64,000 bases of DNA, taken from assembly GCF_013402815.2 (NCBI RefSeq), contig NZ_CP058601.1, forward strand, positions 3,968,001 to 4,032,000, in the 5' to 3' direction. Source of the DNA: Natrinema halophilum. Its GTDB lineage: Archaea; Halobacteriota; Halobacteria; Halobacteriales; Natrialbaceae. The notes under the pieces were generated by a model. That model saw nothing but the letters and a program-made list of their open reading frames with translations, made no database searches and was not told the origin of the DNA. The position numbers and the translations under genes are program-made. Positions within the stretch are counted from its first letter, which is position 1. Each line of letters starts with the position of its first letter. Below are positions 39,459 through 49,581 of this stretch, one piece after another.

Positions 39459-39815
39459 ACGTTTTGGTTCGTCGTAAGCAACTGTCGGCATCTCACAGTC
39501 GACGTCCGGTTCGCGTTTTGAATCCGATCGTGGATACGTCCGTCGCGAACGATGTTGTTCGTCTGGCCTGCGTCTGATGGGTAGAGAGGGGCCCGCTGTA
39601 GACCGGGAACCGCTCCGCTCGGACGTCTCCCCACCGCCGCGGTTCGACGATCGATCTCGGCAATTCGCGAGTGCCGGCGCGACTGCCGAGAAGAGACGGA
39701 ACCAGGCCTGTCCGGCGCGATCTGACCTTGCCGGGCGTAGCATTAACTGAGTGTCTCTGTACGTGTACCTATCAACGCGATCGCGTGTACTGCGTTCACG
39801 CATCGTGCGACCACC
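39459..39815. promoter_or_regulatory. Divergent promoter region, 357 bases
   Basis: Lies between the binding-protein gene and the HEAT-propeller gene. Long open frames run through it on the minus strand but have arginine-rich, non-acidic composition unlike a haloarchaeal protein. A TTAACTGAG at 39743-39751 may mark a promoter; nothing else is seen. Confidence 0.35.
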
Positions 39816-42800
39816 ATGTCAGGATCGAATGAGATCACGAACGGACCGGAAGACAGACGCGAACGCGGACTCGAGGTCACCGTCGGTATCGACCGACTCG
39901 AGTCGTTTTTGACGGCCGACGATCCGGCGGTCAGGAAGTACGCGGCCGAGACGCTTGCGACTGAAGCCGCGAACAGACCGGCTGACGTTCGGTCGGCGGT
40001 GGATGCGCTGACCGATCGCCTCGAGGACGACCCGCCAATCAGATCGCACGCTGTGGCGGCGCTGTCCGCGGTCGCAGCGGTCTATCCGGAGACAACCCGG
40101 GAGGGCGTGCCGACGTTGACCGACCGACTCCACGGACCGACGGCGGTTCGGACGGATGCAGCGGACACGCTCGCATCGATCGCTGCCGAGGAACCGACTG
40201 CAGTCGCCGAGTCCGCACCGGAACTCGCGGCCTACGTCACCGACGAGGAGGCTCGCGTCCGCGTCCGAACGACGGATGCGCTCGCGGCCATCGCGGCGGC
40301 CGATCCCGAGAGAATCGCCTCGGTGGCCGATGACGTTGCGGCGGCGCTCGACGACGACGTCGCGTCGGTCCGCGAGAACGCCGCGGTGACCCTCGCAACC
40401 GTGGCGGCGCACGATCCCGATGCTATCCGGGAGGCGACCGATCGCCTCGTCGGCAGCCTCGAAGACGAGCCCGCCATCAGAGACCACGCTGCGCGAGCGC
40501 TTCGGCTACTCGCGGTCGAACGGCCGGCAGCGATCGCAACCTCGGTCGAACCCATCGCCGCAGGGCTTGCAGACGAGCGAGAGCAGGTCCGCGTCGATGT
40601 CGCAACGGCGCTCGCGGACGTCGCAACCGAGTATCCCGACGCCGTCAGCGCAGTCGTCGGCCGCCTCGCCGCGGCCCTCGAGGACGAAACCGACGTTCGC
40701 CGGGAAACCGTCAGGGCACTTCGCGCGGTGGCCGATGATGCGCCCGGTTCGGTTGTTCCAGCCGTTGACGAACTTATCAAACGTCTCGAGGATGCAAGCG
40801 ATCCAGTTCGAACCGATGCGGCCGCGACGCTGGCAACGCTGGCAGCGGATCGGCCCGACGCGATCGAACCAGCAGTCGAACCGCTCGCCCGTCGGCTGAC
40901 TCGAGACCAGTCGACGATCCGGAGTCACGGCGTTGCGGCTATCGCGGCCGTCGCTGACGCGACTCCCGAAGCCGTCGAACCCGTCGTGGCCGATCTCGCC
41001 AGCGTCCTCGAAGACGATGACGACGACGTACGGCTTCGGTCAGCCCGTGCGATCGCGGCCGTTGCGGAGATCGAACCCGAAACGGTCAGCTCCGTCGTCT
41101 CGGAACTCGCCGACCGCCTCGACGACCCGCACGAACCGATCCGCTATCGAGCGGCGGACGCACTGAGCGCGATCGCACTCGCCGAACCGGTCGACGGGGT
41201 CGACGTTCAGGCGCTCGTCGATCGCCTCGATGCGGACGACGAGTGGATCGCCGGACACGCCGCCCGCCGTCTGGCCGGCATCGCCGAGTCGAGAACGGCG
41301 GATGCCCATCCATCAGTTCGGTCGCTGTGTCGTCGGCTCGAGGCCGATAGCGCGGCGGTTCGGAGGGGTGCGGCCCGCGATCTCGTACCGATCGCGGCCG
41401 AAACGCCGCGGACGGCCCGCGAAGCCGTCGCCCCGCTCGGCGATCGTCTCACGGACGACGACGCGAGCGTCAGAAACAACGCCGCGCTGGCGCTCGCTCG
41501 AATCGCCGATACGTATCCCGACGACGTCGAACCGGCGTTGGCGGGGCTGTTCGGCGCAATTACCGATCCGGATCGGAGCGTGCGTTCTACCGCGCGCGAA
41601 GCGCTCGCCACCGTCGCACCCGACTCGCGGGAGGGCCACCGACCGCTGGTCGCGCTGGCCGTCCGAAAAACCGCTGCGGACGAGGCTGCCGTACGCGCTG
41701 GCGCCTGCGAGGCGCTCGGTGTCTTCGGACTCGAGACCGACGCCGAGACCGAGGCCGTCGTCGACGCGCTGGGCGAACTGCTCGTCGAACCGACGCCGTC
41801 TGTCCGTACCGCGGCCCTCGAAACGCTGGAGGCGCTGCTCGCGTCCGATGCCGGAACCGAGCCGACGCCGATTGAGGCGCTCGAGCGACTCCTGTCGGCC
41901 GACGACGAGCGCTCGGCGGCGGTTGCGATGGCTCTCGCCGACGTCGCACGAACGGATCCGGAACTGATCGCAAGCGCGGAGACGGTGCTGGCAGAGCGAC
42001 TGCGAGCGGCGGACGGACGTCAACGACGGGCACTCGAGCGCGCACTGGCGTCGGCCGCCTCGGAGACGACGCTGCAGTCCGTCACTGAACGCCTGTGTGA
42101 GGACCTCGAGTCCGTTCCGTCGGACCCAGACGGTCGGCGGGCGGTCGCGGTCGAAATCGCTCGGCTGGCGCCTGCATTCCCCGACGACGCGGCCGCTGCC
42201 CGAGACCGATTGGTCGACTTGCTCGCTGACGACGACGAGTCGGTCAGGGGGTATGCAGCGATAGCGATCGGAACGCTCGCGATTTCGGGGCGGAGTAGCG
42301 GCTCCGCGCTGCGGGATGCGCTCGACGGAGTCGACGAACGACTGTCCGACGCCGCGTCGATCGTCGGCGGCGGTGTGAGCTCGAGCCACGTCGACGAGAT
42401 CAACACCCGTCTCTCCGCGTTCGGTCGACGGATCGAAGGCGATCCACTGACCGCCGGACTCGCCGTCCTCGCGCTCTCCGTGCTCGCCGACGAATCCGAG
42501 CGACTCCGTCCGACCGGCGTCTCGAACATCGCGTCCGCGCTCTCCGCCGACAGCCCGATCGTACGGGTTACCGCTGGTCGAACGCTCGTGACGATGGCGA
42601 CGAATAATCCCCACGGACTCGCAGCGGCGACCGACGAGTTGCGTTCGGCGTTATCGGATCCGGTGGCTGACGTCCGGGCCACCGCAGGAGAAGCGCTGGC
42701 CGAAATCGCCGAAGTTACCGGAGAACTCGAGGTGAATACCGGCTCGATCGCGGCCGATCTTCGCCCGCGATTGGTCGATCCCGATGCGCGCGTTCGTGCA

Positions 42801-44033
42801 GTCGCGGCTCGCACGCTTTCGGCCGTCGATGCCGCCGACTCGCTGTCCGCGGTTCGTCCATTGGCCGACGACCCCGTTCCCGCAGTGTCGGGCGCCGCGA
42901 CGACCGCAACTGAGCGACTCGAACTCATCCGCGAGCGCGAGGAAGACGAGAAAGTCGGCTGGCCGATGGTCGGCGGGGGGCCTGCGAGAACCGGTTCAGC
43001 CGGCACCGGCGAGACGCTCGGCGCGAACCCAGCGACGCAGTGGCGCGTCGAGATGGACAGGACGATCGCTGCCCAACCGGCGCTGATCGGCGACACCGTT
43101 TTGATAACGACTGACGACGGCTGCGTCAGCGCGCTCGCCCTCGAGGACGGCCGCGAGCGCTGGCGGTTCGAATCCGATGCGCCGACCGGCACGACGCCAG
43201 CCGTCGTCGACGATACCGTCTACGTCTGTGGAGACGCTGCGGTGTACGGGCTCGAGGCTGAATCCGGCGAGCAATTCTGGCAGTACGACATGGACACCGC
43301 CGCTCGGTCGTCGCCCGTCGTCGCAGGCGAACGGGTCCACATCGGTGGGCGAATCCTCCACACGATCGGCGCTGAAACCGGCCGACCGATCTGGACGGGA
43401 ACGCTTGCGGGATCGCTCGTCGGTACTGCCGTCGACGATGGCGTCGTCTACGCGGCCTGTGAGGACCGTGTAACCGCACTTACCGCTGCCGATGGTCGCC
43501 GCTGCTGGGAGCAAGCGTTCGACACCGAAGGGGGTGCGCCCACATCGCCGTCGGTGGCCGATGGGTGCGTGTACGTCGGCCGTGGCGGCTCGCTGCACGC
43601 GTTGTCGACCGTCGATGGCTCGCATCGGTTCCGATTCGAAACCGGCGGCGAAATCGCGACGGCACCGGCCGTCGCGGACGGGCAGGTTTACGTCGGTAGC
43701 TCTGACGGGAGTCTATACGCGATCGATATGAGCGTGGGGTCCGAGCGCTGGCGCGTCGATGTCGGTAACGCGGTTACCCAGCCAGTCGTCGTCGACGGGA
43801 CCGTCGCTCTGGGAACCGCTGACGGATACGTCCACGCGCTATCGACCGCCGACGGAACCCGGCAGTGGAACCTCGAGCCGACCGACAGCAGGGAGCCGCA
43901 GTCGATCGCTGGTGGGAACGGCCGGCTCTGTCTCGTCGATTCGAACGGAGTCGCCGCCCTCGGAGACGGGCACTCGTCCTGGACGGAGTCAATATCCGGC
44001 TTCTTCACCCGGTTTGGCCCGGAACCACCGTAG
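39816..44033 (+). CDS. Giant HEAT-repeat protein with C-terminal PQQ-type beta propeller
   Basis: 1405 residues. From about residue 25 to 1020 there are some 26 HEAT repeats of about 37 residues, each close to D-x-x-VR-x-x-A-x-x-AL-x-x-IA followed by a second helix ending L-x-DD. From about 1047 a BamB/PQQ-like propeller runs to near 1395, with seven or so blades ending in patterns like VYVGSSDGSLYAIDMSVG and W-R-F-E. It opens with WPMVGGGPARTG, usual for haloarchaeal PQQ-repeat proteins. There is no signal peptide or membrane helix, so it is probably cytoplasmic. HEAT solenoids and propellers are binding scaffolds. The function is unknown; a role in assembling or sensing a large complex is inference. 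Confidence 0.85.
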   Translation: MSGSNEITNGPEDRRERGLEVTVGIDRLESFLTADDPAVRKYAAETLATEAANRPADVRSAVDALTDRLEDDPPIRSHAVAALSAVAAVYPETTREGVPTLTDRLHGPTAVRTDAADTLASIAAEEPTAVAESAPELAAYVTDEEARVRVRTTDALAAIAAADPERIASVADDVAAALDDDVASVRENAAVTLATVAAHDPDAIREATDRLVGSLEDEPAIRDHAARALRLLAVERPAAIATSVEPIAAGLADEREQVRVDVATALADVATEYPDAVSAVVGRLAAALEDETDVRRETVRALRAVADDAPGSVVPAVDELIKRLEDASDPVRTDAAATLATLAADRPDAIEPAVEPLARRLTRDQSTIRSHGVAAIAAVADATPEAVEPVVADLASVLEDDDDDVRLRSARAIAAVAEIEPETVSSVVSELADRLDDPHEPIRYRAADALSAIALAEPVDGVDVQALVDRLDADDEWIAGHAARRLAGIAESRTADAHPSVRSLCRRLEADSAAVRRGAARDLVPIAAETPRTAREAVAPLGDRLTDDDASVRNNAALALARIADTYPDDVEPALAGLFGAITDPDRSVRSTAREALATVAPDSREGHRPLVALAVRKTAADEAAVRAGACEALGVFGLETDAETEAVVDALGELLVEPTPSVRTAALETLEALLASDAGTEPTPIEALERLLSADDERSAAVAMALADVARTDPELIASAETVLAERLRAADGRQRRALERALASAASETTLQSVTERLCEDLESVPSDPDGRRAVAVEIARLAPAFPDDAAAARDRLVDLLADDDESVRGYAAIAIGTLAISGRSSGSALRDALDGVDERLSDAASIVGGGVSSSHVDEINTRLSAFGRRIEGDPLTAGLAVLALSVLADESERLRPTGVSNIASALSADSPIVRVTAGRTLVTMATNNPHGLAAATDELRSALSDPVADVRATAGEALAEIAEVTGELEVNTGSIAADLRPRLVDPDARVRAVAARTLSAVDAADSLSAVRPLADDPVPAVSGAATTATERLELIREREEDEKVGWPMVGGGPARTGSAGTGETLGANPATQWRVEMDRTIAAQPALIGDTVLITTDDGCVSALALEDGRERWRFESDAPTGTTPAVVDDTVYVCGDAAVYGLEAESGEQFWQYDMDTAARSSPVVAGERVHIGGRILHTIGAETGRPIWTGTLAGSLVGTAVDDGVVYAACEDRVTALTAADGRRCWEQAFDTEGGAPTSPSVADGCVYVGRGGSLHALSTVDGSHRFRFETGGEIATAPAVADGQVYVGSSDGSLYAIDMSVGSERWRVDVGNAVTQPVVVDGTVALGTADGYVHALSTADGTRQWNLEPTDSREPQSIAGGNGRLCLVDSNGVAALGDGHSSWTESISGFFTRFGPEPP

Positions 44034-44137: not shown

Positions 44138-44200
44138 GAGGACCAGATGGAGATCGAACGAGGACCAGATGGAGATCGAACGAGGACCAGATGGAGATCG
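44138..44200 (+). repeat. 22-base tandem repeat, about 2.9 copies
   Basis: The unit GAGGACCAGATGGAGATCGAAC occurs at 44138-44159 and 44160-44181, with a third, incomplete copy from 44182. It lies in the 244-base space between the convergent HEAT-propeller and thioredoxin-like genes, where no gene is seen. Confidence 0.9.
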
Positions 44201-44277
44201 GCCGAAGACTAACTGGGGGTCGATCGAGGGCCGAATCGAGGAGAGGCGGTGACATCGGGCCACGGTGCGACGATCAC

Positions 44278-45549: not shown

Positions 45550-48500
45550 TCAACCGTCCTGCATGCGATCGAGGGTCGACTCCACGGCCTCGATTTCGGC
45601 TTCGATCAACCCGTAGCGGTCGTAGACGAGTTCGTCGATTCGGCGGTCCGTTTTTTCGATTTCGGCCTCGAGTTCTTCGGCCCGCTCTTTCGCTTCGAAG
45701 TAGCGGTCCAGACCATTACGAACGTCGTCGACAGCGGGCAACGTGAGTTTCCGAAGGCGATCGATGAGCGAATTCGTTTTGGTAGCCGTCTTTCGAACGT
45801 TCGCGAAGCCACCCGCTTCGTCGACCGCGACGGGGACGAATGCTTCGATCAGGTCCGCCTCGCGCGGCCCGAGACGGGTGATGCGGACCGCGGGTAGCAA
45901 ATCGGTCTCGGTGTAGCCCCACTGGTCGGTCTCGGTCGCAGGTTCGTCCGCAACCGCATCTCCGGTTCCAACTGGAGGCTTGTATCGAGCGGTCGCTTCT
46001 AGTAGGACCGTCCCAGCAGAGCGACGACTCACGGACGCGCGACCGAGGCGGAGTTGCGGCAGTTCACGTGTGGTCTTCTGGAGGGGCGAGTCTGGTGACG
46101 CCACCGGTTGTCTCGACCCAACGCTTGAGAGGGGCTTGCCCGGCCGATACTCGCCCAGTTGCGATCGCAGGTCGAGCGGGAGCGACTCCAGCCTTCGGGT
46201 CGCCTCGATCCGCCGGTTGACGAGGTCCTCGAATTCGGGATCCGTCGGAACGGCAACCGGATAGGATTCGAACGTGGACTGATTGATCTGGGGAAAAACC
46301 GATCGATAGGCGGCATATTTCATTTCGTGGTAGTACTCGAACAGGGACGAATTGAGGACACCGAGAACGCGAACGATATCAGTCTCGGATTCGCTCGCCG
46401 TAACGTTGTACACCGACTTGATAGTTGCACGAGACTCGGTGTCGAGGGCGCCCGTCGGCGTCGCCGCAGTCTGGCGAAAAACGAGCTTTGGACTCGTATA
46501 CTGATCGCGGTCCTTTTCTATCTCGTCGGGCGGAATGTACCGCGTTTCCGCGTCGTCGAACCCGTATGGCTTGATCGCTGAGCCCGGAATAATCGCCTTC
46601 GACTCGGCCTGCGATTTCGTTTCGGACAGAACTGCTGCACGCTTCCCGATCTCTTCGCCCCTCGAGATGGAAACCCGATCCCCGAGCCGTCGGTGGGCGT
46701 CCATCGTCTCCAGAATCGATCGAGTGGTTCGATCCAGGTGAAGCAAGAACCGGTGCTCGTCTTGTTCCCGAAAGACCGACTGCGGAATCTCGTCGTATTC
46801 GGCCGACGACACTGCCGTTGCTCCGTCGGCGAATGCACAGTTGATCGAATCGTCGCTCGATCCGGTTACGAGAACCGCGGCTCCGTTCTCGACGGTGTCG
46901 AACGCCGTTCCGAGGTGGAGAATGTACGCGATGGCCGTGTTGTCTAGCAGATATCGACGAATGTGAACGTTTTGCTCCCGTGTGAGTATTGCGTCGGGAA
47001 CGACGATACCGGTTCGGCCGTCCGCAGCGAGGCGGACGAACTGTTCGTAGAACGCGACGTACAGATCGAACTGCTGGCGCGTGGTCGCGTACTCGTCTTC
47101 GAGATACGCTCGAAGCGATCGGTCCATCGTCGCGCTGATAGCGCCTCGGCCCGCAGTCGCGACCCACGGCGGGTTCCCGATTACTGCATCGAATCCCGCT
47201 CTCTCTTGTGCCCGACCGTTCTCGGTCAGGAATACGTCGGGAAACTCGAGTTCCCAGTGGAAAAACGTCTTCTCGTCGCTCACGGTTTGCGCCCGCCGGA
47301 ACCACTCCGCGGTCCGGAGCTCCGCCCACGTCCCGTCGTCGATCGCTTGCTCGAGTCGTGTGTGGACACCGTCGGGTATTTCGTGGTCGAACTGTGCCGC
47401 GGTGTGAACGTCCGCCAGTTCGAACAGACGCCGGAAAGGGGACTCCGAACGGCATATCTCGTCGCACGCAGCCGTCGACGCGATGGATGCGAGCGTCTCG
47501 GCCGAGAGCACCTCCGTCACGTCCGACCCGACCAGCGAGTTACCCGTCCTGAGATTGTGATCCCGAAATGGGGTCGGCTGGTCGGCCGCGGTCGCCTCGA
47601 GCCACACCGATAGTTTCGCCAGTTCGACGGCCATCTCGTTTCGGTCCACCCCGTAGATGCATTCGGAGACGATTGCTCTCCGAATCCGCCGTTCGTCGAC
47701 GGCAGTCGTTCCCTCGAGTGTGCGGTGCTCGGACACGACCCGGGATGCGAGGTACGCCGTCGCACGCGTGAGGAAGTGGCCGGTCCCCATCGCCGGATCG
47801 AGAATCGTCAGGTCGGTCACCCGGTGATAGAACGCGTCGAGGTACTCCTCGGTTGTCGGTCGAAGTCCCTGTGACGTAAGCTCGTCTTCGATCTCGTTGA
47901 CCAGCGGTCCGACGGTCTTTTCGACGACGTAGTTTACCACCTCGTCCGGCGTGTAGTAGGTCCCCGATGTCTTTCGCTCGCCGTCATCGGTGACGACGTA
48001 CAGCTCACCTTTGTCGACGGTCTCGATCGCATCCGACTCCGGTACATCGATTGCCGGCTTCCAGACCGGCCCGTCGTCCCCTGGAACTGCTGCGTATTTG
48101 GTTGGCGCGATCCGAAACTGCCGTTCGAGCAACGCTTCGTAACCGTTTCCGAGGTGGCGTGTGTCGAGGTCGGCGTAATCGATCGGAACGTGACGCCCTT
48201 TTCCAGTCTCAGTCGTCGAGAGTCGATAGATCGCTTCCGCGAGGTACCGATCGCAGATCGCGCTGGTGGGTAAACATTCGTGCTCCGATCGGTCGAATAA
48301 CCCACTGTCGGTCGACGGCACGGACAGCGCTTCCCCACCCTCGTAGATCGCCTGGAAGAGTCCGTCGAGTCGCTGCCACAACGTCGTCGACCGCTCGTCG
48401 TAGTGCTCGGCAAACCCGTCACCACCCGCGCCGATCTCGTCGTAAATTTCGAATCGAAGTACATCGAGACTGACGGGCGGTTCGTTTGTCTCGTCTCCGT

Positions 48501-49461
48501 CGGAATATGCGGCACCGACGAGTCCTCGGGACTCGGCATACATGACGACCAACAATCGGTAGAGCAAGACGAGCGACTGCGATTTGAGCTCTTCGAGCCG
48601 CTCGTCGTCGTCGGGATCGATTCCGGGGTCGCACCTCTCGTTGATGCCGCGACCGAGAAGCTCCAGTGCCGTGAAACAGCTCTCTTCGAGGTCCGTTCCG
48701 AGTTCCCTGGCGACCGCCCAGCTCTCCGCACGAATCGACTCGAGAACCGTCGTTCCCGACGACTCTCGGAACGCAGCTGCCCGGAAGAAGACGTAGAAGT
48801 ACTTGAACGCCTCGCCGTCGTCGCGCTCGAGCAGGTCCGGTAGATCGACCTCGTAGCGGGCCTGGGTCTCGTACTTGTTTATACCGCCGGTCTGCATTAT
48901 GACTTCGGTCGACCCGTAGAGTCGCCAGGTTCGCCCGTTCGTAAGAATACCCCATCGGACCGACTCCGGCGTGCGTTCGAGGGTGGACGCAATTCCGTTG
49001 GCGGCGACTCGATCGACCGGCCGGCCGTCGTTCTGTGCCGTGTCGATCGCGTCTCGCTGGCACGTTTGCACGATGGCGATAGCATTCTCGAGCGGTGGCG
49101 GTCCCTCGGAGTCGATTCGCTTTCCCGTGTCCGATGATGAGTCGCTATCCCATAGGCCGGTATCGGTATCGTCGTCTAGAAGGAAATCGACGGCGTCGTC
49201 CCCATTTGAAACCGTTGTCTCGACTGTCGTCTCGAACCCGAGCACGTCTAGAATCTCAGGGACCACGTTTTCGACCGCACACTCATCGTCGGGGGCCGAT
49301 TTTGATTCGCTGTCGAACAGCACTTGCAGCCGTTCCATAGCCTCGGTCGCTGCCTCATCGCAGTCCCACGCCGATCGGCCCTGGATCCGTTCGTCGAGAT
49401 AGTAGCGGGCAAAGAGCGACGAGTGTGTGTACGGCCGGTCAGGCTGCGCTCCCTCCCTCAT
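45550..49461 (-). CDS. Type IIG restriction-modification-like protein (Eco57I-type methyltransferase)
   Basis: 1303 residues from the ATG at 49461, which gives the usual RPYTHSSLFARYYLDERI opening; an ATG at 49551 would add 30 residues. The adenine methyltransferase core has motif I DPAMGTGHFL (D555) and motif IV NPPW (763-766), and further helper features (YGVDRNEMAVELAKL; NLRTGNSLVG). A specificity region lies in the C-terminal third (PQINQSTFESYPVAVP), with a coiled coil at the end. In type IIG enzymes the N-terminal nuclease has PD and ExK residues near residue 100-135. Here the second reads VQTC (131-134), so cleavage is probably lost. No other defence gene is next to it. Confidence 0.82.
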   Translation of the reverse strand: MREGAQPDRPYTHSSLFARYYLDERIQGRSAWDCDEAATEAMERLQVLFDSESKSAPDDECAVENVVPEILDVLGFETTVETTVSNGDDAVDFLLDDDTDTGLWDSDSSSDTGKRIDSEGPPPLENAIAIVQTCQRDAIDTAQNDGRPVDRVAANGIASTLERTPESVRWGILTNGRTWRLYGSTEVIMQTGGINKYETQARYEVDLPDLLERDDGEAFKYFYVFFRAAAFRESSGTTVLESIRAESWAVARELGTDLEESCFTALELLGRGINERCDPGIDPDDDERLEELKSQSLVLLYRLLVVMYAESRGLVGAAYSDGDETNEPPVSLDVLRFEIYDEIGAGGDGFAEHYDERSTTLWQRLDGLFQAIYEGGEALSVPSTDSGLFDRSEHECLPTSAICDRYLAEAIYRLSTTETGKGRHVPIDYADLDTRHLGNGYEALLERQFRIAPTKYAAVPGDDGPVWKPAIDVPESDAIETVDKGELYVVTDDGERKTSGTYYTPDEVVNYVVEKTVGPLVNEIEDELTSQGLRPTTEEYLDAFYHRVTDLTILDPAMGTGHFLTRATAYLASRVVSEHRTLEGTTAVDERRIRRAIVSECIYGVDRNEMAVELAKLSVWLEATAADQPTPFRDHNLRTGNSLVGSDVTEVLSAETLASIASTAACDEICRSESPFRRLFELADVHTAAQFDHEIPDGVHTRLEQAIDDGTWAELRTAEWFRRAQTVSDEKTFFHWELEFPDVFLTENGRAQERAGFDAVIGNPPWVATAGRGAISATMDRSLRAYLEDEYATTRQQFDLYVAFYEQFVRLAADGRTGIVVPDAILTREQNVHIRRYLLDNTAIAYILHLGTAFDTVENGAAVLVTGSSDDSINCAFADGATAVSSAEYDEIPQSVFREQDEHRFLLHLDRTTRSILETMDAHRRLGDRVSISRGEEIGKRAAVLSETKSQAESKAIIPGSAIKPYGFDDAETRYIPPDEIEKDRDQYTSPKLVFRQTAATPTGALDTESRATIKSVYNVTASESETDIVRVLGVLNSSLFEYYHEMKYAAYRSVFPQINQSTFESYPVAVPTDPEFEDLVNRRIEATRRLESLPLDLRSQLGEYRPGKPLSSVGSRQPVASPDSPLQKTTRELPQLRLGRASVSRRSAGTVLLEATARYKPPVGTGDAVADEPATETDQWGYTETDLLPAVRITRLGPREADLIEAFVPVAVDEAGGFANVRKTATKTNSLIDRLRKLTLPAVDDVRNGLDRYFEAKERAEELEAEIEKTDRRIDELVYDRYGLIEAEIEAVESTLDRMQDG

Positions 49462-49581
49462 GGTACCCGTTGTCTCGAATCGTCGCCGTAAGAAACCACT
49501 GGTCGACTGGATCACGTCCAGTGATTCCGTCCCAGTCAGCACCCTTTTCATGATCGGTCTCTCAGTCGATAGCGAGAGAAC

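What the first reader, a model, noticed from the sequence alone, without database searches (positions are those of the whole stretch)
39816..44033. 1405-residue HEAT-solenoid plus PQQ-propeller protein
About 26 very regular HEAT repeats joined to a complete propeller in a protein with no signal peptide is an uncommon design. HEAT repeats here are strikingly even (about 111 bases each), suggesting growth by internal duplication. It is divergent from a transport operon. A large cytoplasmic scaffold or sensor is possible; no described system fits.
Basis: partly seen in the sequence, partly recalled or inferred. Interest (0 to 1): 0.6.

Follow-up and report, generated by a model that had tools for sequence, protein, structure and literature searches.

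The report
Archaeal HEAT-solenoid plus propeller scaffold protein
This is a real, undescribed 1,405-residue protein, found only in one family of salt-loving archaea, that joins a long protein-gripping helical coil to an eight-bladed propeller and most likely works as a dispensable scaffold inside the cell; what it binds is unknown.

Summary
Window 39816-44033 (+) encodes one intact 1,405-aa protein: about 27 helix pairs (23 with a clear 36-37-residue HEAT motif) followed by an eight-bladed PQQ-type propeller, with no signal peptide. It is not an oddity of one genome. Single-copy orthologs occur in 36 of 125 genomes of the family (16 of 29 in the genus, Natrinema; 6 of 29 genera). None was found elsewhere among 341 sampled genomes of the class. 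They lie in one chromosomal slot beside topA, except in three genomes of one distant genus. The gene is under purifying selection but evolves much faster than topA, has been lost cleanly several times, and is decaying in two genomes. The HEAT array is old and fixed in size (repeats 28% alike within the protein, 45-71% alike between orthologs at the same position), so recent internal duplication is not supported. The neighbouring transport pair comes and goes independently. The propeller resembles BamB/YxaL in fold, but its nearest homolog in the genome is a PQQ protein with no evident export signal. Best reading: a non-enzymatic cytoplasmic protein-binding scaffold, partner unknown. No published description found. 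Moderately interesting.

The parts
39816..44033 (+). Gene for the 1,405-aa HEAT-solenoid plus PQQ-propeller protein
   Evidence: ORF and translation; orthologs; dN/dS 0.09-0.39
39731..39754 (+). Conserved upstream block ccgggcgtagcattaactgagtgt, candidate promoter element of this gene; also conserved in relatives that lack the divergent transport genes
   Evidence: Alignment of upstream DNA of nine Natrinema/Haloterrigena orthologs; function inferred
39888..42947 (+). HEAT alpha-solenoid, residues about 25-1044, about 27 helix pairs; most conserved at repeats 1-2 (residues about 31-90), repeats 13-15 (about 470-565) and residues 870-890
   Evidence: Pfam, repeat profile, model, conservation
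42948..43031 (+). Poorly ordered linker with the conserved WPM...GP start of the PQQ region
   Evidence: pLDDT under 50 at model residues 205-228 = 1044-1067; alignment
43032..43964 (+). Eight-bladed PQQ/BamB-type beta-propeller, residues 1073-1383
   Evidence: Model and strands, PDB comparison, Pfam PQQ_2
43968..44030 (+). Conserved C-terminal tail, consensus SSW-x-x-SISGLFTRFG; disordered in the model
   Evidence: Tails of 29 orthologs, entropy 0.97 against 1.27 (HEAT) and 1.35 (propeller); pLDDT about 26; motif unique in the genome

Best explanation
It is a non-enzymatic protein-binding scaffold of the cytoplasm. The long HEAT superhelix wraps one partner, probably through its conserved N-terminal repeats 1-2 and a second conserved zone around repeats 13-15. 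The eight-bladed propeller at the far end, with the conserved C-terminal tail, docks a second partner or a surface, so the protein holds or positions two things relative to each other. It is accessory: inherited vertically in Natrialbaceae and lost repeatedly. Shown here: domain make-up, absence of an evident signal peptide, orthology, fixed array size, purifying selection, clean losses. Inferred: cytoplasmic site, scaffold action, which faces bind. Unknown: the partners and the process served.
For: Solenoid plus propeller only, with no catalytic domain by Pfam or NCBIfam; the NCBIfam PQQ-dehydrogenase model scores 61 bits against a cut-off of 480. Best solved-structure matches of the solenoid are scaffolds that embrace partners: CAND1, karyopherins, SF3b, condensin HEAT subunits, with low whole-length TM (about 0.27), so this is class likeness only. 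Best propeller matches are BamB, YxaL and also WD40 adaptors such as Fbw7 and ODA16. N-terminus without export signal in orthologs with a readable start. The nearest PQQ paralog in the same genome (about 430 aa, 30% identity over 1075-1350) has no visible export signal, whereas several other PQQ proteins of the genome begin with Tat-like twin arginines. Both domains keep purifying selection and the full architecture is kept down to 42% identity.
Against: No partner, localisation or phenotype is known. No neighbour is both functionally suggestive and consistently linked: topA adjacency may be mere synteny, and three genomes (L096, L097, L099) have the gene away from topA. Most surface positions of the repeats vary freely. 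Export without a classical signal cannot be excluded from sequence.
Confidence: 0.6

Rival explanations
1. Chromosome-associated HEAT protein that works with DNA topoisomerase I next door, in the manner of condensin HEAT subunits.
For: Cnd1 is the top Pfam hit (E=3e-50); topA is the next conserved upstream gene, on the same strand, in nearly all orthologs; condensin appears among the solenoid fold matches.
Against: Other HEAT families score nearly as well. topA is present in all genomes of the genus while this gene is often absent. An oppositely oriented gene pair sits between the two in nine orthologous loci, and three orthologs lie away from topA. The gene has its own conserved upstream block.
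Confidence: 0.1
2. Membrane-surface or trafficking scaffold, comparable in parts to membrane-coat proteins, docking by its conserved amphipathic-looking C-terminal tail.
For: Solenoid plus propeller in one chain; conserved hydrophobic/basic tail SISGLFTRFG. Haloarchaeal ESCRT loci with propeller-bearing adaptin-like proteins are described (PMC10936438).
Against: Domain order is reversed relative to the membrane-coat definition, propeller first then solenoid (PMC2799638). No Snf7 match above cut-off in any of 125 family genomes, and the weak matches do not track the gene. The helical moment of the tail is modest and the tail has an insertion in the distant genus.
Confidence: 0.1
3. Part of a conflict or defence function (recognition protein), which would explain patchy presence and fast change.
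For: Presence varies among close relatives; about 60% identity where topA is about 91%; the slot also carries a type IIG restriction-methylation gene in the window and in N. gelatinilyticum.
Against: No effector domain; the only PADLOC match is a short HEAT stretch of OloA, 41 bits. The gene tree broadly follows the topA tree and the gene stays in its slot, unlike mobile defence genes. The restriction gene is absent beside most orthologs.
Confidence: 0.07
4. Exported or cell-surface propeller protein with an unrecognised secretion route.
For: PQQ_2/BamB-type propellers are often envelope proteins; several PQQ proteins of this genome have Tat-like N-termini.
Against: No signal peptide in any readable ortholog start; stop codons lie just upstream of the start in distant orthologs; the nearest paralog also lacks an evident signal.
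Confidence: 0.07

Closest known systems
PQQ_2 / BamB-type propellers (BamB, YxaL; PF13360)
   Same: Eight-bladed propeller, clear sequence and fold match
   Different: Those are exported or envelope proteins without a 1,000-residue HEAT solenoid; BamB equivalog score 135 against cut-off 285
CAND1 and importin-beta/karyopherin HEAT superhelices
   Same: Length and HEAT solenoid type; best Foldseek matches of the solenoid
   Different: Low TM (0.19-0.28), no propeller, no sign of common function or descent
Eukaryotic HEAT-then-propeller scaffolds (Raptor, Vps15)
   Same: Order HEAT solenoid then propeller in one large regulatory subunit (own knowledge; not tested here)
   Different: Those carry an N-terminal caspase-like or (pseudo)kinase domain and WD40 propellers (own knowledge); no such N-terminal domain here
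Membrane-coat-like proteins of eukaryotes and Planctomycetes-Verrucomicrobia-Chlamydiae bacteria (PMC2799638)
   Same: Combination of alpha-solenoid and beta-propeller
   Different: Their defining order is propeller first, solenoid second; here it is reversed

Membership tests
HEAT-repeat proteins (PF13646/PF02985) | Tandem antiparallel helix pairs with the HEAT consensus | tested here: met
   HEAT_2 145 bits against cut-off 27.7; 23 motif units; helical solenoid model
PQQ_2 / BamB-like propeller domain (PF13360) | Profile match above gathering score and a propeller fold | tested here: met
   154.9 bits against 27.6; eight blades
BamB equivalog (TIGR03300) | Score over the curated cut-off; lipoprotein of the outer-membrane assembly machine | tested here: not met
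   135 bits against 285.2; no signal peptide
PQQ-dependent dehydrogenases (TIGR03075, TIGR03074) | Score over the curated cut-off | tested here: not met
   61.1 bits against 480 and 36.9 against 832
Membrane-coat architecture | N-terminal propeller followed by C-terminal alpha-solenoid | tested here: not met
   Order is solenoid then propeller; definition in PMC2799638
Membrane-coat architecture | Location at membranes | not testable with these tools
   Needs localisation experiments
Condensin HEAT subunit (Cnd1) | Binding to an SMC-kleisin complex | not testable with these tools
   The Pfam Cnd1 match may reflect generic HEAT repeats; no complex can be tested here
Haloarchaeal ESCRT-adaptin system | ESCRT-III gene in the same genomes or locus | tested here: inconclusive
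   No Snf7 match over cut-off in 125 genomes, but divergent ESCRT-III may escape the model; none recognised at the locus

The most novel reading that the evidence does not exclude
A lineage-specific archaeal scaffold that independently reached the solenoid-plus-propeller design of eukaryotic regulatory or membrane scaffolds and organises a multi-protein assembly, possibly on a membrane through its conserved C-terminal tail.
Probability: 0.08. Interest if true: 0.7.

Novelty: new variant of a known kind. Interest (0 to 1): 0.36.

Why it matters
Very long HEAT scaffolds joined to propellers are best known from eukaryotes. A vertically inherited, signal-less archaeal version, present in some close relatives and cleanly absent in others, gives natural presence/absence pairs in which its role can be tested. 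Without a partner it remains an uncharacterised scaffold family rather than a surprise.

Tried and rejected
Recent internal duplication: rejected, since repeats are less alike within the protein than between orthologs; TRF finds no tandem array in the gene's DNA. Link to the solute-binding protein/permease pair: rejected by independent presence (HEAT gene with the pair in W, L037, L038, L041, L045, L052, L086, L094 and L100, where L094 keeps the binding protein but not a recognised permease; HEAT gene without the pair in many others; the pair without the HEAT gene in L104 and L105, and partly in L103). PQQ enzyme: rejected by NCBIfam cut-offs. ESCRT partner: Snf7 does not track the gene. Tail motif shared with other proteins of the genome: only this gene matches. 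Remnants of the gene in empty slots: none by tblastn. A first genome-contig scan with the single protein found nothing; the alignment scan found eight loci. Two large relative searches failed on the server. The order-wide search with the last HEATs plus propeller found only members of the same taxonomic family.

Full report
OBSERVATION. The window comes from a haloarchaeon of the genus Natrinema. Genome G011 of the same genus has a contig of 348,206 bases, the length of the Natrinema hispanicum record found, and in the topA tree the window groups with N. gelatinilyticum. The ORF at 39816-44033 (+) is intact and encodes 1,405 residues. Pfam sees HEAT families over residues about 25-1040 and PQQ_2 over the C-terminal part. 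A profile made from the repeats gives 23 clear units, mostly at 36-37 residues, scoring 21-60; the best score in 20 shuffled sequences was 14.3. AlphaFold2 models of residues 1-1060 and 840-1405, made from eight sequences, show a continuous solenoid of about 27 helix pairs (mean pLDDT 84) and an eight-bladed propeller closed by strand 1073-1079 (mean pLDDT 80). The two halves were modelled apart, so their relative placement is not known.

NO SIGNAL PEPTIDE. The start region is conserved, the N-terminal 20 residues are polar, and in the distant orthologs a stop codon lies a few codons upstream. A block 62-85 bases upstream of the start, ccgggcgtagcattaactgagtgt, is conserved among nine close orthologs whether or not other genes are inserted further upstream. 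It looks like the gene's own promoter (inference).

THE ARRAY IS OLD. Pairs of repeats within the protein average 28% identity. The same repeat in orthologs averages 71% in the closest and 45% in the most distant, and for the close relatives every repeat finds its own counterpart as best match. Array length is 972-1053 residues in all 28 orthologs compared. The even spacing therefore reflects a fixed fold, not recent growth.

FAMILY AND DISTRIBUTION. Full-length orthologs at 58-68% identity occur in the genus, and at 42-51% in Natronosalvus and Natronolimnohabitans. In the taxonomic family, 36 of 125 genomes carry one copy each: 16 of 29 in the genus, 6 of 29 genera. In an even sample of 341 genomes of the class, all strong matches fall in this one family; the few others are weak HEAT matches. 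An order-wide search agrees. Both domains are under purifying selection, dN/dS 0.09-0.39, though the protein changes much faster than its neighbour TopA (about 60% against about 91% identity).

LOCUS. The gene is next to topA or separated from it only by the transport pair, on the same strand as topA, in all examined orthologs except three of one distant genus. Twelve Natrinema genomes lacking the gene have the same neighbourhood with the gene cleanly missing and no remnant. Mapped on a topA tree, presence needs at least four changes, and the HEAT-propeller gene tree is broadly congruent. The simplest history is one origin in Natrialbaceae and repeated loss. Two genomes show decay: G044 carries a broken copy and G046 a copy truncated before the propeller. 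The divergent solute-binding protein (PF00496) and amino-acid permease (PF13520) are gained and lost independently, so 'divergent from a transport operon' carries no functional weight.

FOLD NEIGHBOURS. Propeller: BamB, YxaL, designed propellers, and WD40 adaptors such as Fbw7. It is far below the cut-offs for BamB equivalogs and PQQ dehydrogenases. The nearest PQQ protein in the genome is a roughly 430-residue protein without a visible export signal, while several others begin with Tat-like twin arginines. Solenoid: CAND1, karyopherins, SF3b, condensin, and designed alphaRep proteins. Whole-length TM scores are low, so the likeness is of class, not of descent.

CONSERVED SITES. The lowest-entropy segments are repeats 1-2, repeats 13-15 and residues 870-890. 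The C-terminal tail, consensus SSWxxSISGLFTRFG, is more conserved than either domain (mean entropy 0.97 against 1.27 and 1.35), is disordered in the model, and its core is unique in the genome. These are the likely contact sites (inference).

INTERPRETATION. With no catalytic domain, a solenoid of the kind that embraces partners, and a propeller of the kind that docks peptides or domains, the most likely role is a two-ended cytoplasmic scaffold (confidence 0.6). Chromosome, membrane, defence and exported roles are listed as rivals; none has specific support. The order HEAT-then-propeller recalls Raptor and Vps15 (own knowledge, untested), without their N-terminal domains.

LITERATURE. Searches for HEAT with PQQ or propeller in haloarchaea found no description. 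The nearest item is a report of haloarchaeal ESCRT loci with propeller-bearing adaptin-like proteins (PMC10936438), a different system. Only open-licence papers were searchable.

VERDICT. Real, conserved, lineage-specific, uncharacterised; an unusual combination of two common domains. Interest 0.36.

Noticed in passing
window 45550-49551 (-): Large Eco57I/type IIG-like restriction-methylation protein (1,333 aa); among the loci compared it lies beside the HEAT-propeller gene only in the window and N. gelatinilyticum (66% identical), so the slot seems open to insertions.
   Followed up: partly
window 44138-44229: 22-base direct repeat GAGGACCAGATGGAGATCGAAC, about three perfect copies, between the HEAT-propeller gene and the convergent thioredoxin-like gene.
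   Followed up: no
L043 4986-14871: In a haloarchaeon of another family: Ser/Thr-kinase-like and phosphatase-like genes beside a 414-aa HEAT protein ending in a zinc ribbon and a 1,384-aa HEAT protein with a hydrophobic N-terminus; a possible signalling cluster, unrelated to this family.
   Followed up: partly
L113 1223-5359 and L114 8291-12430: In two Natrinema genomes topA is about 1,380 aa instead of 826, with its match ending or splitting around residue 500, as if an intein or other in-frame insertion lay inside.
   Followed up: no
L100 9943-13107 and L094 6917-11263: Natural broken versions of the HEAT-propeller gene: one truncated before the propeller, one broken into several frames.
   Followed up: partly
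L002, L021, L023, L032, L033: A stand-alone PQQ-propeller family of about 400 aa without an evident signal (start like VTEWNQYKGDPHNSGLRRDLEGP), found in many Natrinema genomes; closest paralog of the propeller domain.
   Followed up: partly
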